A stretch of DNA of 33,607 nucleotides from a virus. Position numbers and translations under genes: made by a program. Positions 2,867-28,148 of this stretch are shown here, piece after piece. The stretch covers positions 1 through 33,607 of IMG/VR virus record IMGVR_UViG_3300042544_000093, one strand, 5' to 3'. Position 1 is the first letter of the stretch, and every line of letters starts with the position of its first letter. A model generated the notes under the pieces. The model saw nothing but the letters and a program-made list of their open reading frames with translations. It did no database searches and had not been told where the DNA came from.

Positions 2867-4075
2867 ATGGCATACCTTGGTGCAACACCAACTACACAAA
2901 GCTTCTCCCCCGCTATTGATTATTTCAACGGCGATGGGGTAACGATTGCTTTTACGCTCTCACGCCCTGTTGCGTCCGTGGCGCAAGTGCAGGTGGTTGT
3001 TAACAACGTAGCCCAAAACCCAAGCTCAGCTTACACGGTAAGCGGCAACACAATCACATTTACCTCTGCCCCGTCAGTGGGTACGAGCAACATTTATGTC
3101 TACTACACAAGTCCAATCACGCAGGTTGTACAGCCTTCGACGGGTACGATTGGGAAGATTGAGTTAGACATTGCTAACTTAAACGGGACTGGGGCAGCAC
3201 AACTTCCCATAGGCACAACGGCTCAAAGACCCGCTTCTCCTGTTGTAGGTATGCAGCGTTGGAATAGTACGCTCGGTCAGATGGAAGCGTGGACTGGCAC
3301 TGCTTGGCAAGCGGTTACTTCGTTGCTTTATTCGGCTAGTTACCTTGTTGTGGCTGGTGGTGGTGGCGGTGGCTTTAGTCACGGCGGCGGCGGTGGTGCT
3401 GGTGGATTGCTTGCGTCAACTACATCATTCAACTCTGGTGCGTCTTACGCAATTACTGTTGGTGCTGGCGGTGCGGTTAATACTAGTGGAGCAAACTCAG
3501 CAATTGCAACTCTTGGCATAACGGCTATCGGTGGGGGTGCAGGTGCTTATTTTACTGCTACTGCGGCTCTTTCAGGCGGTTCAGGTGGTGGCGGTGCTGG
3601 GGCATCAGGAGTTACAACAGGCGCTGCGGGAACATCTGGACAAGGATTTGCTGGCGGTAATGGGTTTCTTAATTTATTTAGAGCTGGCGGCGGCGGCGGT
3701 GGTGCTAGTGCAGTCGGCGCAAGTGTTGTTACCGATGGCACAGGCGCTGCTGGTGGTGCTGGTGCGTCAAACTCAATAAGCGGCTCTGCTGTTACTTATG
3801 CAGGTGGCGGTGGCGGCGCTGGTAACAGTGCAGGTGGTGGAGCAGGTGGCGCAGGCGGCGGCGGTGCGGGTTCAAATGCTACTACAGCAGGATCAGGCAC
3901 AGCAAACACAGGTGGCGGCGGTGGCGGTACTTCTGGCGGCACAGCAGGCGCAGGCGGTTCAGGCATCGTAATCATCAGCTATCTTGGATCACAACGTGGC
4001 ACAGGCGGTACCGTTACATCTTCGGGTGGCTACACAATCCATACGTTTACATCAAGCAGTACATACAACGCTTAA
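2867..4075 (+). CDS. Glycine-rich tail fibre / adhesin 1, with N-terminal anchoring domain
   Basis: 402 residues in four parts. Residues 1-95 are a beta-sandwich anchor ('TQSFSPAIDYFNGDGVTIAF', 'SAYTVSGNTITFTSAPSVGT') like the particle-binding N-termini of podovirus fibres. Residues about 110-150 form a short stem ('GTTAQRPASP', 'GMQRWNSTLGQMEAWTG'). Residues about 155-370 hold a glycine-rich distal domain with repeated GGGGG blocks separated by variable loops. Residues 373-402 form a conserved tip ('TVTSSGGYTIHTFTSSSTY'). Long Gly runs of this kind can pack as polyglycine-II helices with receptor-binding loops, as known for the gp38 adhesin of phage S16; applying that here is inference. Two paralogues lie downstream (4630-5625, 9263-10243). 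It is followed by an AAGGAG site for the next gene. Confidence 0.85.
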   Translation: MAYLGATPTTQSFSPAIDYFNGDGVTIAFTLSRPVASVAQVQVVVNNVAQNPSSAYTVSGNTITFTSAPSVGTSNIYVYYTSPITQVVQPSTGTIGKIELDIANLNGTGAAQLPIGTTAQRPASPVVGMQRWNSTLGQMEAWTGTAWQAVTSLLYSASYLVVAGGGGGGFSHGGGGGAGGLLASTTSFNSGASYAITVGAGGAVNTSGANSAIATLGITAIGGGAGAYFTATAALSGGSGGGGAGASGVTTGAAGTSGQGFAGGNGFLNLFRAGGGGGGASAVGASVVTDGTGAAGGAGASNSISGSAVTYAGGGGGAGNSAGGGAGGAGGGGAGSNATTAGSGTANTGGGGGGTSGGTAGAGGSGIVIISYLGSQRGTGGTVTSSGGYTIHTFTSSSTYNA

Positions 4076-4442: not shown

Positions 4443-4630
4443 TGCCCGTTAGCACACTTGGTTCTGCTGCTGTAGATAGTGCGTCCCAGACTGGTACGGG
4501 AGCAGTCGTGCTTCCCGTTGGGACTACAGCACAAAGACCAAGTGTTACTGTTTCTTCTATTCGTTTTAATACGACAATAAATAGTGTTGAGTACTACGAT
4601 GTAAACACTTCTTCTTGGAAGTCAATGTAA
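4442..4630 (+). CDS. Stand-alone fibre-stem module (short paralogue)
   Basis: 62 residues, starting in a TAATG overlap with the previous gene and ending in another TAATG. The sequence parallels the first 60 residues of the next gene: 'STLGSAAVDSASQTGTGA' against 'STIGQAGLDSGSFIGTGA', then the shared 'GTTAQRP' and 'IRFNTT..SVEYYDVNTSSW' against 'LRYNTT..GMEVYNGTSW'. It therefore looks like a fibre stem module without a distal domain. It could be a real small fibre component or the remnant of a fibre that lost its tip; intact frame and coupled start favour a working gene. No ribosome binding site is visible, so translation likely depends on re-initiation. Confidence 0.65.
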   Translation: MPVSTLGSAAVDSASQTGTGAVVLPVGTTAQRPSVTVSSIRFNTTINSVEYYDVNTSSWKSM

Positions 4631-5625
4631 TGCCTATTAGCACCATCGGACAAGCTGGGTTAGATTCTGGGTCATTTATTGGCACTGGGGCTATGGCTAT
4701 TCCTTCTGGTACTACAGCACAACGCCCTGCAACAGCAGCAACTGGTCAACTTCGTTACAACACTACGACAAGCGGCATGGAGGTTTATAACGGCACAAGT
4801 TGGGGCGTTGTTGGTGGAGTCCCTTACGCAATTAATTATCTTGTAGTAGCAGGCGGTGGCGGTGGCGGATTTGGCGGCGGCGGCGGTGGCGCAGGTGGCT
4901 TGTTAACTTTTGCCGCAGCTTTATCTACTGGCACGGTTTACACCATAACTGTTGGTGCGGGCGGAACAGGGGGAACACTTGCCGCAAATCCAACCAACGG
5001 CACTAATTCTGTTTTTTCATCTACTGCTTTAACTGTTACTTCAACTGGCGGCGGCGCGGGCGGTAGTAGTGGAGCTAATGGCGCTAACGGCGGCTCTGGT
5101 GGCGGCGCTGGGCGATCTGACAGCTCACGTTCAGGAGGACTTGGAACTTCTGGGCAAGGAAATAACGGCGGAGCAAACGCTGCTGGTGGGGTGTATCCTG
5201 CTGGAGGTGGCGGTGGAGCAGGTGCTGTAGGGCAAGCACCCCCAGATAACAACATTGGTGGTGCTGGTGGCGCTGGAACTGCGTCATCTATTACAGGCTC
5301 TTCGGTTACTTATGCAGGCGGTGGTGGCGGTGGAACACGACAAGGTTTTGCTGGCGGATCAGGCGGAGCAGGTGGTGGCGGTGCTGGAGGCTCATCCGGA
5401 GTTGGAACAAATGCAACCGCAAATACAGGTGGAGGAGGTGGTGGTGGTGGTCAATCTACTCCAGATTTTGCAGAAAAAAACGGTGGCTCCGGCGGTTCAG
5501 GCGTGGTTATTTTGGCTGTTCCCACATCAAACTACTCAGGCACAACAACTGGCTCACCGACAATTACCACATCTGGTTCAAACACTATTATTAAATTTAA
5601 TAGCTCTGGCTCCTATACGGCGTAA
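4630..5625 (+). CDS. Glycine-rich tail fibre / adhesin 2
   Basis: 331 residues when started at the ATG of the TAATG junction at 4630; an in-frame ATG at 4615 lies inside the previous gene and is less likely. Residues 1-65 are the short stem ('PISTIGQAGLDSGSF', 'GTTAQRP', 'MEVYNGTSWGVV'). From 'INYLVVAGGGGGGFGG' onwards the protein is a glycine-rich distal domain with many GGGGG blocks, including an almost pure Gly run near residue 275, and closes with a strand-rich tip ('TTSGSNTIIKFNSSGSY'). It lacks the beta-sandwich anchor of fibre 1. The tip differs from fibres 1 and 3, so it may bind a different receptor; that is inference. Confidence 0.82.
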   Translation: MPISTIGQAGLDSGSFIGTGAMAIPSGTTAQRPATAATGQLRYNTTTSGMEVYNGTSWGVVGGVPYAINYLVVAGGGGGGFGGGGGGAGGLLTFAAALSTGTVYTITVGAGGTGGTLAANPTNGTNSVFSSTALTVTSTGGGAGGSSGANGANGGSGGGAGRSDSSRSGGLGTSGQGNNGGANAAGGVYPAGGGGGAGAVGQAPPDNNIGGAGGAGTASSITGSSVTYAGGGGGGTRQGFAGGSGGAGGGGAGGSSGVGTNATANTGGGGGGGGQSTPDFAEKNGGSGGSGVVILAVPTSNYSGTTTGSPTITTSGSNTIIKFNSSGSYTA

Positions 5626-9262: not shown

Positions 9263-10243
9263 ATGCCTCTTACCCAAGTACAAGGTGAAATGGTAGCTGG
9301 CGGCACCGGTGCTTTGACTGTGCCTGCTGGAACGACTGCGCAAAGACCCGCTTCTCCTACCGTCGGTATGCAGCGTTGGAATACTACGCTTGGGCAAATG
9401 GAAGCGTGGACTGGAAGTGCTTGGCAACAGGTCACTTCATTGTTATATGAAATAAGCTATTTAGTGGTTGCTGGTGGCGGCGGTGCTGGCAGTGCTAACG
9501 GCGGTCAAGGTGGCGGTGGTGGTGGCGCAGGCGGGTTTTTGACTGGTACAGGCGCATTTAATTCAGGAACTGCGTACACAATTACTGTAGGCGCAGGTGG
9601 TGCAGGTGGCACAAATACAAGCACTCCTGCTAACGGCGTTGCTGGTAGTAATTCTTCTATTGCGTCATTGTCTGTCACGGCTATTGGTGGCGGTTATGGT
9701 GGCGCTGCAACTTCTGCTGGAGGCGGATCAGGTGGAAGCGGTGGTGGCGCAGGGACTGGAGGTACAGCATTTTCTGGAGGTTCCGGGACTTCAGGTCAAG
9801 GCAATGCTGGCGGCGCAAACAATGGAAATTCACCATACAGGGGTGGTGGCGGTGGCGGTGCAAGTGCTGTTGGAACAGCGGGTGGAAGCGTAGGTAATAG
9901 CGTAGGCGGGGCCGGTCTTTCTAGTTCTATTTCTGGCTCTGCCGTAACGTATGCAGGGGGCGGTGGCGGTGGCTCACATTCATCTTCAACTGCTTCAGCC
10001 GCAGGTGGTGCAGGTGGTGGTGGCGCTTCAGCAAGTCAGGCAAGTCAAACAGGCGTTGCTGGAACTGCAAACACGGGTGGTGGCGGTGGCGGCGGTGCAA
10101 ACGTAGGTGTTGGCGGAGCAGGCGGCTCAGGCGTAGTTATTATTTCCTACGCAGGCTCACAGCGTGGCACAGGTGGCACCGTAACCTCATCAGGCGGATA
10201 CACCATTCATACCTTCACGTCTTCAAGCACATACACAGCATAA
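9263..10243 (+). CDS. Glycine-rich tail fibre / adhesin 3
   Basis: 326 residues. It opens with a stem nearly identical to that of fibre 1 ('GTTAQRPASPTVGMQRWNTT', 'LGQMEAWTGSAWQQVTSLLY'), without the beta-sandwich anchor. It continues as a glycine-rich distal domain ('YLVVAGGGGAGSANGGQGGG' and many later GGGGG blocks). The tip 'SQRGTGGTVTSSGGYTIHTF' followed by TSSSTY is the same as in fibre 1 apart from the last residues. Loops between Gly blocks differ strongly from the other two paralogues, as expected if they determine specificity. The last base of its stop is shared with the next start (TAATG). Confidence 0.83.
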   Translation: MPLTQVQGEMVAGGTGALTVPAGTTAQRPASPTVGMQRWNTTLGQMEAWTGSAWQQVTSLLYEISYLVVAGGGGAGSANGGQGGGGGGAGGFLTGTGAFNSGTAYTITVGAGGAGGTNTSTPANGVAGSNSSIASLSVTAIGGGYGGAATSAGGGSGGSGGGAGTGGTAFSGGSGTSGQGNAGGANNGNSPYRGGGGGGASAVGTAGGSVGNSVGGAGLSSSISGSAVTYAGGGGGGSHSSSTASAAGGAGGGGASASQASQTGVAGTANTGGGGGGGANVGVGGAGGSGVVIISYAGSQRGTGGTVTSSGGYTIHTFTSSSTYTA

Positions 10244-13155: not shown

Positions 13156-13587
13156 ATGCTACCGATTATGGATATCCTTGGCATCGGGATGAAGGTGCTA
13201 GACAAGTTTTTTCCTGATCCTGAGCAAAAAGCAAAGGCTCAGTTAGAGCTTATGCAGATGCAGCAAAATGGTGAGCTTGCCAAGATGCAAGCGGATATGC
13301 AAGAGCAAGGCGAGCTGACCAAGCGCCAAGAGAACGACATGAAGTCCGACTCATGGCTGAGCAAGAACATCCGCCCGATGACGTTGATTGCTATCCTTGC
13401 TGGCTACTTTACGTTCGCTATGATGAGCGCGTTTGATATGGAAACCAACAAGGCTTACGTCGAGCTGCTCGGGCAGTGGGGGATGTTAATTATGTCCTTC
13501 TACTTTGGTGGCAGAACGCTGGAAAAGATTATTGACATGAAAGCTAAAGAAAAAATTACTGAAACGGAGATTAAAAATGCAAAGTAA
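13156..13587 (+). CDS. Holin, phage 3-TM/GTA-type family
   Basis: 143 residues; a GTGAGG lies 7 bases before the ATG. Residues 1-20 form an amphipathic start ('PIMDILGIGMKVLDKFFPDP'). Residues 22-65 are a Gln/Met-rich coiled coil ('KAKAQLELMQMQQNGELAKM'). The family hallmark 'DSWLSKNIRPMTLIAILAGY' begins the first membrane segment (about 74-92), and 'GQWGMLIMSFYFGGRTLEKI' the second (about 102-118). This matches the 'holin of 3TMs' family found in gene-transfer agents and many phages. It should form the inner-membrane lesions that release the endolysin. The endolysin ATG lies 11 bases inside its end, so the two are coupled. Confidence 0.85.
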   Translation: MLPIMDILGIGMKVLDKFFPDPEQKAKAQLELMQMQQNGELAKMQADMQEQGELTKRQENDMKSDSWLSKNIRPMTLIAILAGYFTFAMMSAFDMETNKAYVELLGQWGMLIMSFYFGGRTLEKIIDMKAKEKITETEIKNAK

Positions 13588-14089
13588 TTGGCAAAAAGCG
13601 TTTGAGCAGATGCTGGCGAGCGAGGGAGGTTACGTTAACCACCCATCCGATCCCGGAGGACGGACAAACCTTGGAGTCACTCAAAAAGTCTGGGAAGAGT
13701 GGGTTGGTCGCGAGTCCAACGAAAAAGAGATGCGTAGCCTGACTCCTGAGATGGTGGAACCCCTGTACAAGCGTAAGTTCTGGGATGCCTGCAAGTGCGA
13801 CGAGATGCCATCAGGTATTGATTACCTTGTCTTTGACTTTGCTGTAAACGCTGGCCCCGGTCGTAGCGCTAAGATCCTGCAAACTGCTGTGGGGGCTACA
13901 CCTGATGGTGGCATTGGGCCAATGACTTTAGCTGCAGTAAATCAGTTTTCTGCTGAAGAGCTGGTTGAAAAGTTCAGCCAAGCCAAGGAAGACTTCTATC
14001 GCAGTTTAAACACCTTTGAGACATTTGGTAAAGGCTGGTTGAATCGCGTTGCTGCAGTTAAAATCAAAGCAACTTCCATGCTTGGATAA
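13577..14089 (+). CDS. Endolysin, glycoside hydrolase family 108 N-acetylmuramidase
   Basis: 170 residues, the ATG placed 7 bases after GGAG and overlapping the holin end by 11 bases. Residues about 8-95 are the GH108 catalytic domain, with the catalytic glutamate E16 in 'LASEGGYVNHPSDPGG' and the following 'RTNLGVTQKVWEEWVG'. Residues about 96-165 are the usual C-terminal peptidoglycan-binding part ('GRSAKILQTAVGATPDGGIG', 'KEDFYRSLNTFETFGKGWLN'). It cleaves the glycan backbone of murein after holin action. There is no signal peptide, so it depends on the holin. The length is typical for the family. A hairpin lies just after the stop. Confidence 0.92.
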   Translation: MQSNWQKAFEQMLASEGGYVNHPSDPGGRTNLGVTQKVWEEWVGRESNEKEMRSLTPEMVEPLYKRKFWDACKCDEMPSGIDYLVFDFAVNAGPGRSAKILQTAVGATPDGGIGPMTLAAVNQFSAEELVEKFSQAKEDFYRSLNTFETFGKGWLNRVAAVKIKATSMLG

Positions 14090-18460: not shown

Positions 18461-18864
18461 AAATACAGCATGTACCGTTGCAGCATGTTGCGCAAACTTG
18501 GGAATTAGTCCAAGAGCATTTAGCTGAATCACAAGTACATGCAAAAGGGGATTACACCCTTGAGCAAATTAAGTTATGTGTATTGACTGGGCAGTGGTTG
18601 TTGTTAGTAGCAACGGATGATGACAATAAGATTCACGGCGCAATGACCGTAGATTTTATAAACCGCCCAAACCACAGAGTAGCTTTTGTTACAGGTACTG
18701 GCGGTAAGTTTGTTATCAACGAAGAAACGTTTAAGCAACTAGAAAATATATGCCGGGTCAACGGTGCTACTAAGATAGAATGCGCTGCAAGGGATTCGAT
18801 GTCTAGGCTGTTGGGGCGGTTTGGGTTTAACGAAAAATATATTATTTTAGAGGTATCACTATGA
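18457..18864 (+). CDS. GNAT-like N-acetyltransferase
   Basis: 135 residues, joined to both neighbours by ATGA overlaps. The pattern 'HVAQTWELVQEHLAESQVHA', 'YTLEQIKLCVLTGQWLLLVA', then strand 'KIHGAMTVDFINRPNHRVAF', a loop 'VTGTGGKFV' (78-86) in the place of the acetyl-CoA pyrophosphate loop, 'FKQLENICRVNGATKIECAA' and 'LLGRFGFNEKYIILEVSL' follows the GNAT fold order and ends with the usual 'GF.EKY' element. The consensus R/Q-x-x-G-x-G/A loop is only partly kept, so cofactor binding is likely but divergent. The substrate is unknown. Being locked into the ejection-protein operon suggests it modifies a virion protein or a host target late in infection; that is inference. Confidence 0.78.
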   Translation: MKIQHVPLQHVAQTWELVQEHLAESQVHAKGDYTLEQIKLCVLTGQWLLLVATDDDNKIHGAMTVDFINRPNHRVAFVTGTGGKFVINEETFKQLENICRVNGATKIECAARDSMSRLLGRFGFNEKYIILEVSL

Positions 18865-19982
18865 GCGGCGGCGGATCATCAACACCTACCCAGCAGAATG
18901 TCACAACGACATCTATTCCAGAATACGCACGTCCTTATGTAGAGAAATCAATAGGGCAAGCTGCTGCGTTAACAAACATTAATGACAATCCATATACGCC
19001 TTACGGTGGGCAACAGGTTGCTGCGTTTAATCCGCTTCAGTCTCAAGCAATGGGCAACATTGCTAACCAACAGACTGCATCACAACTGACAGACGCATCT
19101 AACATCGCGTCGCGGGTTGGGCAGATGGCGCTTCAGACCCCTGAGCAAGCTCGTGGGTTGCAGAACACAGCGTTGGGTTATGGCGCACAAGCTGCTGGTG
19201 CTGGCTCTCAGTACGCAAACATGGCGACTTCCCCCGGTGCTATTGGCGCTTATATGTCGCCCTACATGCAGAACGTTGTTGATCTGCAGAAACAAGAAGC
19301 TAATCGTGCGTTTGATATTACTGGCGCACAGGTGCAGGGTCGTGGTGTGCAAGCTGGTGCCTTTGGTGGCTCCCGTGACGCGTTGATGAGGGCTGAAAAC
19401 GAGCGCAATCGCAACACCGCATTGGCTAACATCCAAGCACAAGGTTCTCAATCTGCTTACGATCAAGCCATGAAGTCTATGCAGTATGGTTCAGGTCTTG
19501 GTTTGCAAGGTCTACAGACAGGACTACAAGGTGTTCAAGGTGCGGTGGGTGCAGGTCAATACGGTCTTGCAGGCTTAGGTACAGCAGGTACAGCAGCTTC
19601 TACCCTTGGTGCGTTGGGTCAGACTCAGTTTGGTCAAGACATGGCTATCAACCAAGCTCAAATGCAAGCTGGTGCGTTGCAACAAGCTCAAGAGCAGAAA
19701 GGTTTGGATGTTGCTTACCAACAGTATCAAGACAGCTTAAACTATCCGTACAAACAGCTTGGGTTTATGTCTGACATCTATCGTGGCTTGCCAATGGCGC
19801 AGTCCGCACAGTCTATGTATCAGAACCCAAGTATGGTTTCTCAAGCCGCAGGTCTTGGCACGGCGGGTATGGGTATCTACGGCATGTATAACATGATGAA
19901 TAAAGCAAAAGGCGGTGCTATTGAAGACCAAGAAAGTGACGGTCTCGATACGCTAGGCATGTACAACGCCATGAAAGGATGA
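18861..19982 (+). CDS. Internal virion / structural protein rich in Gln, Ala and Gly
   Basis: 373 residues, starting in an ATGA overlap with the acetyltransferase. The N-terminus is low-complexity ('SGGGSSTPTQQNVTTTSIPE') and leads to 'YARPYVEKSIGQAAALT', 'NPYTPYGGQQVAAFNPLQSQ'. The middle contains long helices with Gln/Ala periodicity and 'DITGAQVQGRGVQAGAFGGS', then a Gly/Leu/Gln-rich stretch ('LGLQGLQTGLQGVQGAVGAG'). A C-terminal 'GLGTAGMGIYGMYNMMNKAK' is amphipathic and could contact membrane. It matches a protein type common beside ejection proteins in aquatic podoviruses. A core or ejection role is inferred. Length and composition are typical of that type. Confidence 0.72.
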   Translation: MSGGGSSTPTQQNVTTTSIPEYARPYVEKSIGQAAALTNINDNPYTPYGGQQVAAFNPLQSQAMGNIANQQTASQLTDASNIASRVGQMALQTPEQARGLQNTALGYGAQAAGAGSQYANMATSPGAIGAYMSPYMQNVVDLQKQEANRAFDITGAQVQGRGVQAGAFGGSRDALMRAENERNRNTALANIQAQGSQSAYDQAMKSMQYGSGLGLQGLQTGLQGVQGAVGAGQYGLAGLGTAGTAASTLGALGQTQFGQDMAINQAQMQAGALQQAQEQKGLDVAYQQYQDSLNYPYKQLGFMSDIYRGLPMAQSAQSMYQNPSMVSQAAGLGTAGMGIYGMYNMMNKAKGGAIEDQESDGLDTLGMYNAMKG

Positions 19983-19986
19983 TGTG

Positions 19987-21612
19987 ATGATTACGGACAT
20001 GAACGCTCGTGTGGCAATGGCTCAAAAGTTATCCATCCCACAACTCCAGCAAGCTATTAAGAATGGTACTGTACCTGCCTATGTAGGCGTCCCTCTCTTG
20101 CAAGACAAAATGCGCCAGCAACAACAGATGCAAATGGCAGCGGCGCAACAGCAACAAGGTCAACAGCAACAACAACGCCCAATTGCCGACGAGGTAATGG
20201 ATCAAGCTTATGAGATGAACGGCGGCGTAGACCAGTTACCAAGCAACCTGCCAATCCAAAACGAAGAAGACGAAAAGGGTTATGCAGGTGGTGGCATCAT
20301 TGCGTTTAGTGGTGACAGAACAAGTGATGTTCGGGATCCAGACAGACGTTCTCCTACAGATAGAGGGATAGACGAATTAATAGCGCGGATTAATAGTTCG
20401 GCAAACAACAACATAGTCATTCCTCCTGCCGCTAATACAGGTATAGCAGGGGTTGCGCCAGAAGTATTTTCGGTAGATGGGGTGTCCCCAGAATTTGGCG
20501 GGTCATCTATTACTGCAGATCAAGATGCTGAGCGAGTAGCAAAAATTCAAGCTGAACGTACCGCAGCAGAAGATGCTCAACGACAAGCGTTTTTACGCAC
20601 AGCCGCCCCTCAAATGGTAAGACCTGAAGCCCCAGCACCTGAAAGGACCGTAGATACTGGTATGTTTAGTGGCGTAGATTCTACAGGTCCAGATGTAATC
20701 CCGCCAAAAGCTCCTTCGCAGGGCGCGGTGTCACCTGATGTGGCAAGACAGATTAGTGCTACAAACCCGGGCGCGCCAGCTTCACTCGATGCAGCGGAAC
20801 GTCAAGCAGCAAATGGGTCTCCACAAGCTTCCGCAGCGGTTAGCATGCTAGACAGATACGTCGCTATGCTTGAGAAGAGCGGGGACGATGTTGGACGTCA
20901 GAAGAAAGAAGCTTTGTACATGGCTCTTATTCAAGGTGGTCTTGGCATGATGGGCGGCACATCGCCTAACGCGTTTGCAAACATCTCTGCAGGTCTGTTG
21001 CCTGCTACACAGGCTTACCAACAAGCTATTGCAGGTATCCGCAAAGATGACCGCGCGCGTCTTGAGAAGCTTATGTCTGCCGGGCTTAAGAAAGAAGAGT
21101 TCCTGCTTAAGGCTCAAGAAATTGGTATCAACCAGCAGAAAGCTGACAATTGGTATGAAGTTATGAAAGACAGAAACGCCGCAATGGCTGGGCGCGGCGG
21201 TGGCGATAAAGATTCACGGCAACTAAGACAGCTAGCGTTCCAAGCTAATTCTAAATATTTAGAAACGCAAAGAGATGCTCCAAAGTTAAAAAACACGCAA
21301 GACTATAAAGACGCTGCGGCTGTACTTGCTATGCCGTTGCCTAAAAACGCTTCGCCAATGATGGTAGAGCGGCGCAAACAAGCGCAACAAATTGTTGACG
21401 ACATTAACTCTCAAATTACTGGGCGTGTAAATGAAGCTAGGATAGCAAGAGATTTTTGGTCTGGCGAAGCTAACTTTGACCCCGCTAAAATGTACAGCGG
21501 AGACGCGTCTGGCGGTAATGTCCCTACTATATCTTCGCAGGCTGATTACGCTAAACTACCCAAAGGCGCAAAATATAAAGACCCGAATGGCGTATTACGT
21601 ACAAAAGGCTAA
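19987..21612 (+). CDS. Internal virion (ejection) protein with C-terminal 'SQADYAKLPKGAKY' motif
   Basis: 541 residues from the ATG at 19987, which is 8 bases after AAGGA; a GTG at 19984 directly before it is an alternative adding one residue. The N-terminal 70 residues are helical and very Gln-rich ('KMRQQQQMQMAAAQQQQGQQ'). 'YAGGGIIAFSGD' lies at 99-110. The middle is disordered and Pro/Ala-rich; residues about 285-400 are helical with a hydrophobic Gly/Met patch ('YMALIQGGLGMMGGTSPNAF', 'RLEKLMSAGLKKEEFLLKAQ'). The C-terminus 'SSQADYAKLPKGAKYKDPNG' is a short motif I know at the ends of phage virion proteins. It probably co-assembles with the giant protein encoded 2 bases later. Confidence 0.73.
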   Translation: MITDMNARVAMAQKLSIPQLQQAIKNGTVPAYVGVPLLQDKMRQQQQMQMAAAQQQQGQQQQQRPIADEVMDQAYEMNGGVDQLPSNLPIQNEEDEKGYAGGGIIAFSGDRTSDVRDPDRRSPTDRGIDELIARINSSANNNIVIPPAANTGIAGVAPEVFSVDGVSPEFGGSSITADQDAERVAKIQAERTAAEDAQRQAFLRTAAPQMVRPEAPAPERTVDTGMFSGVDSTGPDVIPPKAPSQGAVSPDVARQISATNPGAPASLDAAERQAANGSPQASAAVSMLDRYVAMLEKSGDDVGRQKKEALYMALIQGGLGMMGGTSPNAFANISAGLLPATQAYQQAIAGIRKDDRARLEKLMSAGLKKEEFLLKAQEIGINQQKADNWYEVMKDRNAAMAGRGGGDKDSRQLRQLAFQANSKYLETQRDAPKLKNTQDYKDAAAVLAMPLPKNASPMMVERRKQAQQIVDDINSQITGRVNEARIARDFWSGEANFDPAKMYSGDASGGNVPTISSQADYAKLPKGAKYKDPNGVLRTKG

Positions 21613-21614
21613 TC

Positions 21615-24600
21615 ATGGCTAATTTCTGGGAAAACGACCCTGAAGTAAAAAGTGGGGATGCATCTAACTTTTGGGAAAACGACCCAGTCGTAGAAGAAAG
21701 AAAACGAGAAGAACCAAAAGAAGAACCCAAAGAAGCTACCGCTAGTGGGGAAGCGGTTAAAAGTTTTAAGCAGATGGGTTCTGCTTATCAGACTGCGCTT
21801 GGCACTTTTACAGGTGATCCCGAAGCCGCTGTGCGCGAGGGTATGAAGCGCCAGCAAGAGTACATTAAACAGTACGGACAAGCTCGTGGTCTAGAAGAGT
21901 TCACGAAAGCCTATGGCGAGAACGGTATCTTTGCTGCTGGTGCTGAAGCTTTGTCACAAATACCCACGGCATTGTCTGGTCAAGCTGCAAACCTAGCTAC
22001 TATTGTAGGCGGTGGTAGGCTTGGCGCGATGGTAGGCGCTCCTCTTGGTCCGGCTGGTGCTGCAGTAGGCGCTACGATTGGTGCAATCGGTACACAGATT
22101 ATTCCTTTCTACCAACAAAACCTTGAGGCGCAGTTGCGCGCGCAGGAAGAGCGTGGTGAGAAACCGGATCTAAACCGTGCTAAAGCTCTTGCGTACGCGG
22201 CGGTACAGTCTAGCGCCGAGATTGGTGGTACGGCATTAGCGTTCGGTAAGAATTTAATTGGCAAGATCATTGGGTCAAAGCCCGCTGCCGAAGCTACCGA
22301 GACGCTTGTTAAAGCAGCTAAACAGTCACTACTTGGCGCGGCGGGTAAAGGCGCGCTACGTGCAACCGGGGCAGAGATACCGGTAGAGATGGCACAAACT
22401 ATTCTCCAACGACACCAAGCCGGTGAGTCACTGACTGACGCCGATGCACTTGAAGATTATAAAAATACTGTCTACAGCACAGTGTTGGTAGCAGGTCCGC
22501 TTGGTGCTGGTGCAGGCCCAATCAACCGTATGCAAGCGCGCGGTAAGCTCGCGGAGCAAGAGCTACAGAAACAGTTACAACAAGAAACCGAAGAAGAAAT
22601 TAAGACAGAGACCACACAAGCCCCGCCTGTTGGCGAAGCTGATATTGAAAAACAAATTGCAGATATTGAAGCTGCTGGTACGACCCCGCCTGTTGATAAA
22701 GATGTAATTGTTAGTCAAGGAGATCAAAGTGCAACTGCTCAGACTGACGGTACAGGAGCTGGAGTTGGCACTACAGTTTCTGGACAGCCCGCAGGAGGAC
22801 CCGCCACAGGAGTTGTGGGAACTGACGGAACTGGAGTGGCTGTCACTGGAGATACTAGCCAACAGGCTCAAACTACAACAACTGAACAGCCCAGTGCAGT
22901 AGAAGCACTAGACTTTCAAGCTTGGTTAAACAAAAAGGGTATCCCACTTACAAGCATAACGTCCCAAGAACAATGGGATGCGTTACAGCAAGAGTGGAAT
23001 CAAGAAACTGGAAGCGGTAGCCAACAAGCTACACCTGCTGTCACTAAAACACCTAAAGTATCTAAGACAGAAAGTGAAATTACTAGTTTATTGCAACCCT
23101 TAACTAATGGCGGGATGAGTCCTGAACTATCATCGGTTGATGAACGCAAGCTAGTGCAAAAAATGGTAGCTAAAACAATAAATGATGGTTTAGCTGCTGG
23201 TAAAACCAACGAAGAAATTTTACAACAAATTAATAGAAGCACTAGAGATGCTTTAGGTTCTGGTGGTGTCTATGCAATTGATGGTTTTATTACAAATAAA
23301 CGGGATGAAATAAAGAAAAAAGTTACTACACCTGCTGTTACTACACCTGCACCAGTACAAGAAGCTGCTCCTGTTGTGGCTACACCCACCGCAGTTACTG
23401 CCCCCGCGCCAATTAAAACCGAAACCGAAACAGGTTTAGATGTTTTAGCTGAAAAGAAAATTGCTAAACCTATTAAGTATGTGGACAGGTATACACCAAC
23501 ACCTGAGCCATCGGCAAATAATTTTCTTAACCAGAATAGTACTTACGGCAAAGAGGCACCTCTTACTGTAGACCGTGGCGTTGATATGGCTGCGGCTGAC
23601 CAAGCTTTTGACCTGTTTGATTCTGCATACGGAAAAGTTCTTAACCGTCTGAGAGTCTTAACTAACGCAAAAAATAAACAAGAAGGTGTTGACGGTAAGT
23701 ATTCATTTGAGCGCCCGCTAGAGTTCATGACGGCAAATGAGCTAATTGATTTATACAAACAAAATTTTGGCGCGCGCAAAACATTCGACGAAGGCGGTAA
23801 GGCGCGACTTGATGCCGCCAAAAACCGTGCGGCGTTTGTAGAATCTTTAACGCCTGAACAACGCGCCAAATACGATGCCGCTTTAGAAAAGCTTTTAAAA
23901 CAAACTGTCATGGCAGAAGCCAGCGGGCGTCGTGAGGCTACCGAAAGTGACCAGCGCAAGCAAAAAGAAAAACAAGAAAAGCAGACAAAGAAACAGACAA
24001 AGAAAGCTGTTGCCGATGTTCAAGAGCAAGTAACTGAAGCAACCAAGACCGACGAACAGATTGCGGCGGAAGAACGTGCTGAAGCTGAAGCTTTCATAAA
24101 ACAACAAGAGACGGATAAAGATAAGTCGGACACCGCTGACGCCCTTAAATCTGAGGCGCAGGTAGAAACGGAAGCTAAAACGGAAGCGGTCAAAGAAACT
24201 AAAGAAGAAGAAAAGAAAGTTACAAAGCGCGACAAGCGACTTATGTCCGCCGTCAATGACTCTGGCGATATAAAGAGCGTACTTGAAGAGATTGCTGGTG
24301 GTGAAACCACAGCTGTGTCAGTAATTGCTGAAAAATTAGCCAGTGTCTTTAAGTACTTAAGCATTACTGACCCAACCGCTAAACGCATTCAATTTTCTGA
24401 AAATTTTTTAGCTACTGTTGGCGTCAAAGATGCTGATACTAGCGGCGCTGCTACCAGCGAGGAAAGAAAAACTACTAAAGTTAACAAAAAAGAAATTAAG
24501 AAAGCGCTTTTAACTAATGACGGTATGTTTATACCAGATGCTAACGTGATCTTGATTGCTGGTGCTGACGGTAAATATACTGGTAAGCGTGATCTAGGCG

Positions 24601-27600
24601 AAGTAGTTCTGCATGAAATAATGCACTATTACACAGACCATGTAATAGATAACCGCGCTGCTTATATAAATAGCCTAGACCCTGAATATCGTGCCGAAGC
24701 TACAGCCGCGCTCAATCGTCTTAGATTGAATTTTATTCGCGCAAAATCCGTGCTAGGCAAAGAATTTAATATACCAACCATCAAAGAATTTATTGCTGAA
24801 ACTTTTTCTAACTCAGAATTTCAGCAAGCTTTAAAGCGCCTTGATGCGGAAGGTAAGCAATACAAATCTGTAACTAAAGATAACATGTTCTTAAATTTTG
24901 TTAAGAACGTAATGTCTGCGCTTGGTATATACAGCACGAACGATATAAACGTTACGCTTAAAGAAACGCTAGAAGACGTCATGAATATTATTTCTACGCC
25001 GCAAGCTGGTATGCGTGGGCGTAGCGTTTCATACAGCACAGCGCCCAAAACGACAAACATGGGACCGTCTAAGCCCGCGAGCCTGTACGACGATGACTTA
25101 AGATATATGCCGGAGAAGTTTAAAACCGAAAGTCTGGTTACTAGAATAGCTAAGGCGGTCACGCCAGATTGGTTGGTTAAGAAGTTTCAGAACGATAAGC
25201 AGCTGTCTAAGAAATTGGAAAACCAATTAGGGCTGGCTGGCAAATTAAAAATGAGCGGGGAAGACCGTAACGACTCATACACCATTGTGTCGCTCGCTCG
25301 CGGTATCAGCAAAAACTTATACAACGAAAAAATTCTTCCGGGCGTGACAAAACTGGAAACAGCTTTTAACGAGCTATCCAAACTCACTAAGCTGTCAAAC
25401 GAAAAACTTGTTGCTTTGATTGACAAGGTATCTATTGCCAAGCACGAGCCTGAGCGTCGTATAGTTAAGTTCCTTAAGACCGCGCCTTTAAAGCCACAGA
25501 TGGCGGACGTTCGCCAAAACATTTTTAAGCTGCTTGACTCGAACACGTTAAGCCAAGCTCAAGCAGTACGGCTGCGTAAAAAGCTAGATGCAATCATGTT
25601 CCAAGTTGACCAGAACGGCAACCCAGTTATTGGGCCTGACGGTTATCCGGTTGTGAACACAAATAATGTTACGCCACTTGGCAACAGTCCAAGAGACTTT
25701 AAAACTACCGATGTTAGTCATGCAGACTACACCGTGGTGGATATGGACGGCGCGTCGGTTAAAAATATTAACGATGAGTACAACAACCACCCGCAAAAAG
25801 CCTTGATTGACCGCGTGTTAGCGGCACAGCAAGAAATCATAAACTCGTCTAAAGAGCTTAACCAGACAGCTAACTATGTTTCAGACCCAGTAAATAACCT
25901 GATAAATTTTTACGGATGGAAGAACTACGTGCCGATGAAGGCGCGCTTTGAAGCCGACGGAGATTTTGATCCCGCACACAGGGGTCGGGAAGAACAGGAA
26001 AACCAGTATTCGTTTGAAGGTATGGATAAGGTACCTGATAGCCCGCTCCTGTATGTTCTGTCCGATGGTGCGCGCGCGGCTTCGCGTGCTGGGCGTGAAG
26101 GCTATACGCTGTCAATTAAAAACAACGTGCTTCAAGGAAACATTCGGGGAGCTGTTCCCGGAGATGTTAAAAACATCCCATTTGATGCGCGGGATACAGA
26201 GTTAAAGAAATTTAAAAAAGCAAGTACCATCTTCCATTACAACAAAGATGGTTCGGTCGATGTGATTACGATCAAAGACCCAGCAGTGATTGATTCGTTG
26301 CGTCGTACATACAAGGACAGTAACCCCCTTGTTGATGCCATGAACATAGCAACTGGTTTCGTGGGTAAGATGCACACGCGGTACAACTACGCGTTTGCGC
26401 CAATGAACTTCGTGCGTGACGCACTGACCAACTCTTTTGTGTTGGGTGCTGACTTCGGTCCCGGCGCAGCTGCAGAAATGCTTGGTGCAATGGCGGCTAA
26501 AGTAGGCGCGCAAGGCGGCTTGTACAAGGCTATGAGAATAGCAAACATGTACGAGAACGGTGACGTTAAAGGCATGCGAGACTACGCATCCAAAGACGCC
26601 TTTGCCAAAACTATCGTAGAGTATCTCTTGAAGGGTGGCGCTACAGCATACACCTCTAGCATCGCGCTTAAAGATCAGCTGCAAGAACTTAACAAAGAAC
26701 TTGGGCGCGGCAAGATCATAAAGACACGCGATCAGCTTGAAAAGTTTGTTGATGTCTGGAACAACATGTTTGAATTTAGTAGCCGCGCCGCCGCTTACGG
26801 TGTGGTGAAAGACAGGTTTATGAGCCAAGGTATGTCCGATGCAGATGCTGCTCAGCGCGCTGTAGGGTATGTCAAGAACCTAGCTAACTTCGAACAGACA
26901 GGCGAGTATGGCAAGATGATGGGCGGCTTGTTCATGTTCTTCCGCCCCGCCGCAACGGGCGCTGTTCGTGCTATTGAAGCTGTAGTACCTGCATTCCCGG
27001 GGTCTTTGGCGCGCGCAGTAGCTGCCTTGCCAAAATCTATTAGGGATGACACGCAGGCTTTGGCTAGGTTTGAAAAAGCGTACGCGCAAAAGCAACAGAG
27101 CGCGCGCATCATGGTTACATCTCTCATGGGTCTTGGGATGATGATGTATTACATGTCGGCTATGATGTCGCCAGAAGATGAGCTTGGTCGCAACTCTGTA
27201 CACTCTGACAACATGAAGCAGTGGAGTCGTTACGCGCGCTTCCACATACCAAATGAAATATCCGAAAAGCTTGGTATGGGCAAAGACGTTGTATTCCAAA
27301 TGCCGTGGGGCTTTGGACTTGGCGCGTTCGCAGCTGCTGGGGCGCAGATAGCAGCAGCAGAGGCTGGTCGTGGGACTCTTCAAGAGGCGCTTAAAAACAT
27401 CTTTACCGACATCGCGCTCGATTCGTTCGTGCCGTTGCCGATATCTAAGATGGATGCCACAGACAACCCGATCAACTTTTTAATTGACTCAATTTCGCCA
27501 AGCATAGCGCGTCCGCTATTACAGTTCGCACTGAACAAAGACGGTCTGGGACGGGGCATATACAACGAGCCGTACCGCCGTATGGCAGATGCGTTTGGTG

Positions 27601-28148
27601 CCGGAGACCGTATCCCTGAAGCATATAAGGATGCCGCGCGCTATGTCTTTAACGAGATGGGTGTAGATGTAAACCCGAACTCACTCTACTTCCTGTCCAA
27701 CAGTTACTTTGACGGTGTAGGGCGTTTGCTTGAAACCGTTTACAGCGCGCTTGGACTTTCAGGTGAGAAGCCTGATAACATTAAACGCGACAGTTTGTTA
27801 TTCGGGTCGTTCTTTGGGTCTAAGGGTAACGTGGACAACCGCGAGTGGGGTGAGGTGCAGTCTCAGCTCATGAAGAAGCAAGCGAACTTGAATGGCGCTA
27901 AGACTGACCCAGAAGCGTACTTCAAGTACATGGAACGCAATCCGATGGACGAAGTGCTGGTTAAGTCATACCTAAAAGACGTCAACGGGTCGCTGAAGAA
28001 ACTGCAAACTGAAGCTAAACAGATCAGGATGATGCCCGGTCTGTCGCCCAAAGAACGTCAAGAAATGTTGGAGCCTAATCGCATGATGCAAAGTCTGATT
28101 AAGTCCAACCTAGTAGAGAAGTACAAGATGTACGGGATTAATCCTTAA
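21615..28148 (+). CDS. Giant polyvalent internal virion protein with HEIMH metallopeptidase signature and LPD38-type C-terminus
   Basis: 2177 residues. Residues 3-10 and 18-25 are a tandem motif ('NFWENDPEV', 'NFWENDPVV'). Residues about 118-165 are a Gly/Ala hydrophobic zipper ('GGGRLGAMVGAPLGPAGAAV'). Residues about 315-650 are low-complexity Thr/Gln/Pro-rich; about 770-880 are Lys/Glu coiled coil. 'GEVVLHEIMHYYTDHV' gives H-E-x-x-H at 1000-1004, a zinc metallopeptidase signature. Residues about 1563-2177 ('MNIATGFVGKMHTRYNYAFA', 'FVRDALTNSFVLGADFGPGA') match the large polyvalent protein-associated domain LPD38 from memory. Such giants are packaged in podovirus heads and ejected into the cell. 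I see no lytic transglycosylase motif. The stop overlaps the opposing gene's stop. Confidence 0.82.
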   Translation: MANFWENDPEVKSGDASNFWENDPVVEERKREEPKEEPKEATASGEAVKSFKQMGSAYQTALGTFTGDPEAAVREGMKRQQEYIKQYGQARGLEEFTKAYGENGIFAAGAEALSQIPTALSGQAANLATIVGGGRLGAMVGAPLGPAGAAVGATIGAIGTQIIPFYQQNLEAQLRAQEERGEKPDLNRAKALAYAAVQSSAEIGGTALAFGKNLIGKIIGSKPAAEATETLVKAAKQSLLGAAGKGALRATGAEIPVEMAQTILQRHQAGESLTDADALEDYKNTVYSTVLVAGPLGAGAGPINRMQARGKLAEQELQKQLQQETEEEIKTETTQAPPVGEADIEKQIADIEAAGTTPPVDKDVIVSQGDQSATAQTDGTGAGVGTTVSGQPAGGPATGVVGTDGTGVAVTGDTSQQAQTTTTEQPSAVEALDFQAWLNKKGIPLTSITSQEQWDALQQEWNQETGSGSQQATPAVTKTPKVSKTESEITSLLQPLTNGGMSPELSSVDERKLVQKMVAKTINDGLAAGKTNEEILQQINRSTRDALGSGGVYAIDGFITNKRDEIKKKVTTPAVTTPAPVQEAAPVVATPTAVTAPAPIKTETETGLDVLAEKKIAKPIKYVDRYTPTPEPSANNFLNQNSTYGKEAPLTVDRGVDMAAADQAFDLFDSAYGKVLNRLRVLTNAKNKQEGVDGKYSFERPLEFMTANELIDLYKQNFGARKTFDEGGKARLDAAKNRAAFVESLTPEQRAKYDAALEKLLKQTVMAEASGRREATESDQRKQKEKQEKQTKKQTKKAVADVQEQVTEATKTDEQIAAEERAEAEAFIKQQETDKDKSDTADALKSEAQVETEAKTEAVKETKEEEKKVTKRDKRLMSAVNDSGDIKSVLEEIAGGETTAVSVIAEKLASVFKYLSITDPTAKRIQFSENFLATVGVKDADTSGAATSEERKTTKVNKKEIKKALLTNDGMFIPDANVILIAGADGKYTGKRDLGEVVLHEIMHYYTDHVIDNRAAYINSLDPEYRAEATAALNRLRLNFIRAKSVLGKEFNIPTIKEFIAETFSNSEFQQALKRLDAEGKQYKSVTKDNMFLNFVKNVMSALGIYSTNDINVTLKETLEDVMNIISTPQAGMRGRSVSYSTAPKTTNMGPSKPASLYDDDLRYMPEKFKTESLVTRIAKAVTPDWLVKKFQNDKQLSKKLENQLGLAGKLKMSGEDRNDSYTIVSLARGISKNLYNEKILPGVTKLETAFNELSKLTKLSNEKLVALIDKVSIAKHEPERRIVKFLKTAPLKPQMADVRQNIFKLLDSNTLSQAQAVRLRKKLDAIMFQVDQNGNPVIGPDGYPVVNTNNVTPLGNSPRDFKTTDVSHADYTVVDMDGASVKNINDEYNNHPQKALIDRVLAAQQEIINSSKELNQTANYVSDPVNNLINFYGWKNYVPMKARFEADGDFDPAHRGREEQENQYSFEGMDKVPDSPLLYVLSDGARAASRAGREGYTLSIKNNVLQGNIRGAVPGDVKNIPFDARDTELKKFKKASTIFHYNKDGSVDVITIKDPAVIDSLRRTYKDSNPLVDAMNIATGFVGKMHTRYNYAFAPMNFVRDALTNSFVLGADFGPGAAAEMLGAMAAKVGAQGGLYKAMRIANMYENGDVKGMRDYASKDAFAKTIVEYLLKGGATAYTSSIALKDQLQELNKELGRGKIIKTRDQLEKFVDVWNNMFEFSSRAAAYGVVKDRFMSQGMSDADAAQRAVGYVKNLANFEQTGEYGKMMGGLFMFFRPAATGAVRAIEAVVPAFPGSLARAVAALPKSIRDDTQALARFEKAYAQKQQSARIMVTSLMGLGMMMYYMSAMMSPEDELGRNSVHSDNMKQWSRYARFHIPNEISEKLGMGKDVVFQMPWGFGLGAFAAAGAQIAAAEAGRGTLQEALKNIFTDIALDSFVPLPISKMDATDNPINFLIDSISPSIARPLLQFALNKDGLGRGIYNEPYRRMADAFGAGDRIPEAYKDAARYVFNEMGVDVNPNSLYFLSNSYFDGVGRLLETVYSALGLSGEKPDNIKRDSLLFGSFFGSKGNVDNREWGEVQSQLMKKQANLNGAKTDPEAYFKYMERNPMDEVLVKSYLKDVNGSLKKLQTEAKQIRMMPGLSPKERQEMLEPNRMMQSLIKSNLVEKYKMYGINP

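What the first reader, a model, noticed from the sequence alone, without database searches (positions are those of the whole stretch)
24558..24650. Zinc metallopeptidase signature in a packaged 2177-residue protein
'VVLHEIMHYYTDH' gives HExxH at residues 1000-1004, next to a hydrophobic strand as in true metallopeptidases. Giants of this kind usually carry lytic enzymes; I see none, so this phage may rely on an injected protease acting on host proteins or on virion maturation.
Basis: partly seen in the sequence, partly recalled or inferred. Interest (0 to 1): 0.65.

Follow-up and report, generated by a model that had tools for sequence, protein, structure and literature searches.

The report
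Conserved metallopeptidase in phage ejection giant
An environmental phage carries, inside a 2177-residue protein that is probably packed in the virus particle and shot into the bacterium, a zinc-protease domain whose metal-binding residues never change in 74 of 74 relatives; this protease type is already described in phage 'polyvalent' proteins, so it is a well-supported member of a known kind whose real substrate remains unknown.

Summary
HEIMH lies at residues 1000-1004 (nt 24612-24626) of a 2177-aa ORF; chance predicts about 0.005 such motifs in this protein. It is a real domain: in 74 of 74 relatives found by a different part of the protein, HExxH and a downstream Glu-Phe (E1058-F1059) are invariant, giving the missing third zinc ligand, E1058 (gluzincin type). 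The profile matches PDB 9sfn chain G, which is phiKMV gp37 (internal virion protein, E 3.7e-10), N4-type virion RNA polymerases and, weakly, the minigluzincin projannalysin. A structural second look ranks zincins first (anthrax lethal factor Z about 7, N4 vRNAP 5.7, PPEP 5). The C-terminal half is the LPD38 core of phage polyvalent proteins (best BFVD E 3e-24). So this is the zincin MPTase of phage polyvalent/ejection proteins described by Iyer et al. 2017, in a giant without recognisable methylase, helicase or lysozyme. The idea that the protease stands in for a missing lytic enzyme is not supported. My best guess is regulated self-processing around ejection (about 0.4); host cleavage is a live rival. 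Identity is nearly settled, function is not. A side finding may be more novel: swappable, usually paired short N-terminal tags.

The parts
21615..28148 (+). 2177-aa giant, last gene of the late/virion operon (polyvalent-type ejection protein)
   Evidence: LPD38 by Pfam 1.9e-16; 261 relatives of its C-terminal half in viral contigs
21618..21716 (+). N-terminal tandem pair ANFWENDPEVK / SNFWENDPVVE (swappable tag)
   Evidence: sequence; self-repeat test
21912..22574 (+). aa 100-320, alanine/glycine-rich, hydrophobic patches; possible membrane-inserting region (inference, compare N4 vRNAP N-terminal domain)
   Evidence: hydropathy profile; N4 parallel PMC12633501
22575..24281 (+). aa 321-889, mostly low-complexity, charged linker with one better conserved stretch at about 641-760
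   Evidence: conservation and composition profile
24333..24992 (+). zincin metallopeptidase (MPTase) domain, about aa 907-1126
   Evidence: alignments A1-A3, A6; models; fold second look; profile hit to phiKMV gp37
24612..24626 (+). HEIMH, H1000-E1001-xx-H1004: two zinc ligands and general base
24786..24791 (+). E1058-F1059, predicted third zinc ligand (Glu) in the following helix, 54 residues after H1004
   Evidence: 74/74 invariant; helix predicted in model
25182..28145 (+). C-terminal, mostly helical module, aa 1190-2177, most conserved part of the protein
   Evidence: BFVD matches to LPD38/polyvalent proteins
25191..26318 (+). aa 1193-1568: tentative resemblance to T7 core protein gp16 residues 516-859 (Z 6.2, 193 aligned)
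   Evidence: single row, not confirmed by sequence
27207..27785 (+). LPD38 domain, aa 1865-2057
   Evidence: Pfam PF18857, 61.1 bits against cut-off 27
18861..19982 (+). 373-aa protein, PHROG 4287 'DNA ejection protein'
   Evidence: 1.1e-20
19984..21612 (+). 542-aa protein between the ejection protein and the giant, candidate second ejection protein (position only)
   Evidence: order small-medium-large as in T7 gp14-15-16 (PMC8954989)
14127..16268 (+). virion structural protein, PHROG 3287 (head and packaging)
   Evidence: 1.5e-65; related to 'stabilization protein' of Phage DSL-LC04, 35%

Best explanation
The motif is the active site of a gluzincin-type zincin metallopeptidase domain (about aa 907-1126; ligands H1000, H1004, E1058; base E1001) in a phage polyvalent/ejection giant. 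The giant is made late, packed in the head with the other ejection proteins, and passed through the tail into the cell. The domain sits between a low-complexity linker that follows a possibly membrane-inserting N-terminal region and a large conserved C-terminal module (LPD38). I propose that the protease is held inactive in the virion and, once the unfolded chain has passed the tail and refolded, cuts the giant's own linkers, releasing the C-terminal module from the membrane-bound N-terminal part. Shown here: the domain, the invariant ligands, the family links, the gene position. Inferred from homologues: packaging and ejection. Inferred with weak support: that it is catalytically active and that its main substrate is the giant itself. 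My separate estimates: zincin domain of this family 0.95; packaged and ejected 0.85; catalytically active 0.8; self-processing as main role 0.4.
For: Invariance of H, E, H, E, F in 74/74 relatives found through the C-terminal half, not through the motif, which argues for catalysis rather than a relic. The profile of the domain hits only one PDB protein strongly, 9sfn_G 'internal virion protein' (2.6e-7; 3.7e-10 with the larger profile), which is phiKMV gp37, then the minigluzincin projannalysin (0.0022). At a nominal 100,000 sequences it hits a Schitoviridae virion RNA polymerase (3.3e-10), Vibrio phage 1.205.O's 3130-aa giant (1.6e-9) and phiKMV gp37 (1.2e-7); the Schitoviridae vRNAPs examined keep HExxH and a downstream EF. 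VIA-align second look: anthrax lethal factor protease domain Z 6-7, N4 vRNAP 2141-2363 Z 5.7, PPEP Z about 5, first non-zincin 3.6. Gene order 373 aa, 542 aa, 2177 aa at the end of the late operon fits gp14-gp15-gp16. Virion presence of a DarB-like giant was shown by mass spectrometry in phage JC1 (PMC9144972). Self-processing: P1 DdrB is cleaved before packaging and Iyer et al. propose that these peptidases process the giants (PMC5512222).
Against: N4 vRNAP, with the same domain, is packaged uncleaved (PMC5512222) and recombinant full-length vRNAP showed no degradation (PMC12633501), so cleavage in cis is not automatic. No cleavage site was found or sought systematically. The only occurrence of 'zinc' in the text of the N4 structure paper is the word zincin. 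Foldseek alone gave no significant PDB match; Z values near 7 are within the range the tool warns about.
Confidence: 0.45

Rival explanations
1. Injected effector: the domain is an active protease whose main target is one or more host proteins (for example a defence or envelope protein) in the first minutes of infection.
For: Ejected-protein context; fold neighbours are dedicated proteases of family M34; Iyer et al. list this option.
Against: The domain is kept in all 74 relatives regardless of the other parts; an effector against host defence would be expected to be gained and lost. No host target is suggested by any data here.
Confidence: 0.25
2. Assembly or ejection protease acting on other phage proteins: it trims ejection, scaffold or portal-associated proteins in trans during head maturation or channel assembly.
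For: Conserved in packaged proteins of several phage families; last gene of the ejection operon.
Against: No other processed virion protein is known in N4 or phiKMV to need it (own knowledge, not tested); no substrate motif found.
Confidence: 0.15
3. Zinc site used for folding or stability, or a protease fold used as a domain-domain clamp, with no proteolysis needed.
For: In N4 the C1 domain with HExxH contacts the polymerase as part of a C-terminal domain that restrains it (PMC12633501); no proteolytic activity is reported there.
Against: E1001, which by analogy does not bind zinc and is needed only for catalysis, is as invariant as the ligands.
Confidence: 0.14
4. Chance HExxH in a helical protein.
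For: None beyond the shortness of the motif.
Against: Conservation, third ligand, fold and profile matches.
Confidence: 0.01

Closest known systems
Zincin-like MPTase of phage polyvalent proteins (Iyer et al. 2017, PMC5512222)
   Same: HExxH helix, following helix with Glu, embedded in a phage giant with LPD38, late-gene context
   Different: This giant carries no second recognisable enzyme (no methylase, helicase, lysozyme, ART by Pfam); I could not test which of Iyer's 12 clades it belongs to
phiKMV gp37 internal virion protein (PDB 9sfn chain G)
   Same: Homologous protease domain HEAVHAAT...NVKELVAWGLTDTRFQ, packaged ejection protein, E 3.7e-10
   Different: 1337 aa; similarity limited to the protease region; no LPD38 found by Pfam
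N4-type virion RNA polymerase, C1 domain (residues 2124-2375)
   Same: HExxH...EF domain, ejected giant, possible membrane-inserting N-terminus, low-complexity linkers, large helical region after the protease
   Different: No RNA polymerase in the window protein; homology of the regions after the protease was not established
Vibrio phage 1.205.O 3130-aa and Bcep22/JC1-type DarB-like giants
   Same: LPD38 C-terminus (4e-44 in 1.205.O); 1.205.O also has the protease; JC1 giant is in virions
   Different: They are 1000-2700 residues longer and add methyltransferase or helicase domains; the Atu_ph08 giant has no HExxH
Peptidase family M34 (anthrax lethal factor, PPEP)
   Same: Predicted zincin fold with a Glu third ligand (structural second look, Z 5-7)
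   Different: No sequence relationship found; different protein context

Membership tests
Zincin MPTase of phage polyvalent proteins | HExxH in a helix | tested here: met
   invariant 74/74; helix 100-117 of model
Zincin MPTase of phage polyvalent proteins | conserved Glu in the next conserved helix | tested here: met
   E1058 invariant 74/74, helix 162-171 of model
Zincin MPTase of phage polyvalent proteins | three-stranded sheet before the HExxH helix | tested here: inconclusive
   strands 61-63, 76-79, 84-87 in the model, the first at low pLDDT
Zincin MPTase of phage polyvalent proteins | part of a large multidomain protein with other polyvalent-type domains | tested here: met
   LPD38, 61.1 bits against 27; BFVD matches named polyvalent proteins
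Zincin MPTase of phage polyvalent proteins | unrelated enzymatic activities joined in one chain | tested here: inconclusive
   only one enzymatic domain recognised; unannotated regions remain
Zincin MPTase of phage polyvalent proteins | proteolytic activity | not testable with these tools
   needs biochemistry; not shown for this domain in the papers read
T7 gp16-type ejection protein | last and largest gene of a three-gene ejection operon | tested here: met
   373, 542, 2177 aa; PHROG 4287 ejection protein first
T7 gp16-type ejection protein | fold related to gp16 | tested here: inconclusive
   one row, Z 6.2, 193 aligned, 10% identity
T7 gp16-type ejection protein | N-terminal lytic transglycosylase | tested here: not met
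   no lytic domain by Pfam; the feature is phage-specific and absent in P22-like phages (PMC8954989)
N4 virion RNA polymerase | single-subunit RNA polymerase domain | tested here: not met
   none by Pfam or PHROGs
Peptidase family M34 | sequence similarity to lethal factor or PPEP | tested here: inconclusive
   fold second look only; profile search of PDB lists no M34 chain

The most novel reading that the evidence does not exclude
The zincin domain is a near-universal, catalytically required part of a shared ejection-protein core spanning polyvalent giants, phiKMV gp37 (a T7 gp16 counterpart) and N4-type virion RNA polymerases; the protease works in genome or protein delivery itself, and the giants are addressed into the virion by interchangeable paired N-terminal tags.
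Probability: 0.2. Interest if true: 0.65.

Novelty: new member of a known kind. Interest (0 to 1): 0.37.

Why it matters
It adds a large environmental family (261 matching stretches in viral contigs) to the phage zincin peptidases, gives them an exact third ligand, and ties them by sequence to phiKMV gp37, for which a solved structure exists and which the 2017 survey's main text does not mention. If the protease is active, a question open since 2017 (what does the commonest domain of polyvalent proteins cut?) becomes testable in laboratory phage N4 with one conservative point mutation.

Tried and rejected
Foldseek against PDB gave no significant match for the domain model (mean pLDDT 64) or the larger model (pLDDT 77); zincins appear only in the VIA-align second look. 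In the larger model the N4 chain was aligned at 2377-2584 instead of 2141-2363, so only the first is used. Homology of the C-terminal module to the N4 C2 domain: hhalign gave E 0.0015 but probability 17%, and with a larger profile a reversed control scored equally; not claimed. SprT-like (Pfam) matches at 0.0071 to 0.00086, below its curated cut-off; treated as a general HExxH resemblance. Genome contigs: no relative, so no host or prophage link. Close phage isolates: none by the domain in tblastn (best E 0.07). L112 at first seemed to lack the domain; it lies in another frame of a contig with several frame breaks and was left as it is. Atu_ph08 and 252E42.2 giants have no HExxH, so the domain is not universal among LPD-type giants outside the near family. 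Literature search for N-terminal packaging tags found nothing relevant.

Full report
What is there. The window is the whole of a 33,607-base virus record. The ORF 21615-28148 encodes 2177 residues. HEIMH is at 1000-1004 and is the only HExxH in the window ORFs examined; composition alone predicts 0.005. The stated coordinates contain it.

Is it conserved? A first search found long relatives; the five loci that reach the region all have HExxH although the surrounding sequence differs. A search with the domain gave 25 loci, all with the motif and with a downstream E-F element preceded by an aliphatic residue. The strict test was a search with the C-terminal half only (A5), which does not contain the motif: 261 relatives, 80 kept. 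Of these, 74 have an ORF matched by the domain profile, and in all 74 the columns H, E, H, E and F are unchanged. Five others are cut at the 5' end and one (L112) has the domain in another frame of a contig with frame breaks. In an alignment of 67 sequences over 1196 residues, 22 columns are invariant, five of them H1000, E1001, H1004, E1058, F1059. E1058 is therefore the predicted third zinc ligand and the domain is of the gluzincin type.

What is it related to? The profile finds in the PDB the 'internal virion protein' 9sfn_G (2.6e-7; 3.7e-10). Its sequence is that of phiKMV gp37, the counterpart of T7 gp16 (PMC8954989). The next hit is projannalysin, a minigluzincin (0.0022; that it is a minigluzincin is own knowledge). 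In isolated phages the profile finds the virion RNA polymerase of Erwinia phage MIF8, the 3130-aa giant of Vibrio phage 1.205.O and a Pantoea phage G19 protein annotated as metallopeptidase. N4 itself and six other Schitoviridae polymerases have HExxH followed by a conserved EF. A model of the domain (pLDDT 64) was compared by VIA-align 2 with Foldseek's candidates: the 38 best rows are all zincins, apart from one row for the lethal factor N-terminal fragment, led by the anthrax lethal factor protease domain (Z 7.0), N4 vRNAP 2141-2363 (5.7) and PPEP (5.0); the first unrelated row is 3.6. These Z values are moderate, and Foldseek itself gave no significant match, so the fold claim rests on agreement of ranking, sequence profile and conserved residues.

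The rest of the protein. Pfam finds LPD38 at 1865-2057. A model of residues 895-2090 from 67 sequences (pLDDT 77) matches predicted viral proteins with E down to 3e-24, many named large polyvalent protein associated domain. One row resembles T7 core protein gp16 (9jyy_I, Z 6.2, model 299-674); I treat this as a lead. The N-terminal third is alanine/glycine-rich with hydrophobic patches, followed by low-complexity linkers. N4 vRNAP has the same general plan, with a membrane-inserting N-terminal domain and flexible linkers (PMC12633501).

Context. Upstream genes match PHROG 'virion structural protein' and 'DNA ejection protein'; the giant is the last and largest gene of that run, and a primase/helicase-type gene (DUF927; PHROG 8841) follows on the other strand. 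A DarB-like giant of this general class was detected in virions of phage JC1 by mass spectrometry (PMC9144972). Packaging here is therefore likely but inferred. A separate endolysin (GH108) is present, so absence of a lytic domain in the giant is not remarkable.

Mechanism. Iyer et al. (PMC5512222) describe this domain type as the commonest in polyvalent proteins and offer self-processing, before or after ejection, or cleavage of host proteins. P1 DdrB is cut before packaging; N4 vRNAP is packaged uncut, and recombinant vRNAP showed no degradation. The equal invariance of the catalytic Glu and the ligands argues for chemistry and not only for a structural zinc. I favour regulated self-processing after ejection, at about 0.4, with host cleavage second.

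Novelty. The kind is known. New here, as far as I could check, are the size of this environmental family, the strict conservation test, and the sequence link to phiKMV gp37. The function remains open for the whole class.

Side observation. The N-terminus of the window protein is a tandem pair of an 11-residue motif. Relatives with the same C-terminal half carry other, unrelated motifs there, mostly also in pairs: 30 of 53 distinct N-termini have a self-repeat that at most 1 of 100 shuffles reaches, against 14 of 159 internal control segments at a looser cut. In N4, about 16 N-terminal residues of the ejection protein gp52 are seen in 12 copies in the head-tail adaptor lumen of filled virions (PMC12633501). 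The tags may be docking peptides of that sort; this is inference.

Noticed in passing
21618-21716 (aa 2-34) and N-termini of relatives L004, L079, L081, L082, L088, L091, L103, L105, L109, L114, L135, L138, L141, L145: N-terminal tandem pair of a short motif (ANFWENDPEVK/SNFWENDPVVE). Relatives with homologous C-terminal halves carry other unrelated motifs, mostly also paired (REFTGELxPL, SPEEWLAQQ, GPWEQYQ, NYFDQFDE, LPEGFQLE, FDIEGARRAGASD). 30 of 53 N-termini show a significant self-repeat against 14 of 159 controls at a looser cut. Possibly interchangeable bivalent docking or packaging tags.
   Followed up: partly
L159 2454 (ORF 1672 aa), L160 7536 (ORF 817 aa), L158 1033 (minus, ORF 323 aa): The FWENDPxV motif also stands at or near the N-terminus of ORFs in other contigs, in L160 inside an array of several different pairs (IYDDE/VFDDE, FWENDPIV/FWANDPIA, KDEFGG twice).
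   Followed up: partly
window aa 1193-1568 (25191-26318): Region after the protease resembles T7 core protein gp16 residues 516-859 (9jyy_I, Z 6.2); single row, no sequence support.
   Followed up: partly
L068 3253-7266 (phiKMV gp37, residues 423-427): phiKMV gp37, annotated as 'internal virion protein with endolysin domain' (PDB 9sfn chain G), carries the same zincin domain (HEAVH, NVKELVA); phiKMV is not mentioned in the Iyer 2017 main text.
   Followed up: yes
2867-4075, 4615-5625, 9263-10243: Three glycine-rich late proteins share near-identical stretches (AQRPAS..GMQRWN, GGTVTSSGGYTIHTFTSSSTY), apparently paralogous tail-fibre or adhesin genes.
   Followed up: no
13156-13587 and 13577-14089: Putative holin-like gene (by eye) followed by GH108 endolysin (Pfam 3.8e-30).
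   Followed up: no
L112 3116-10030: Giant gene broken into four overlapping frames in this contig; probably sequence errors, domain residues intact.
   Followed up: no
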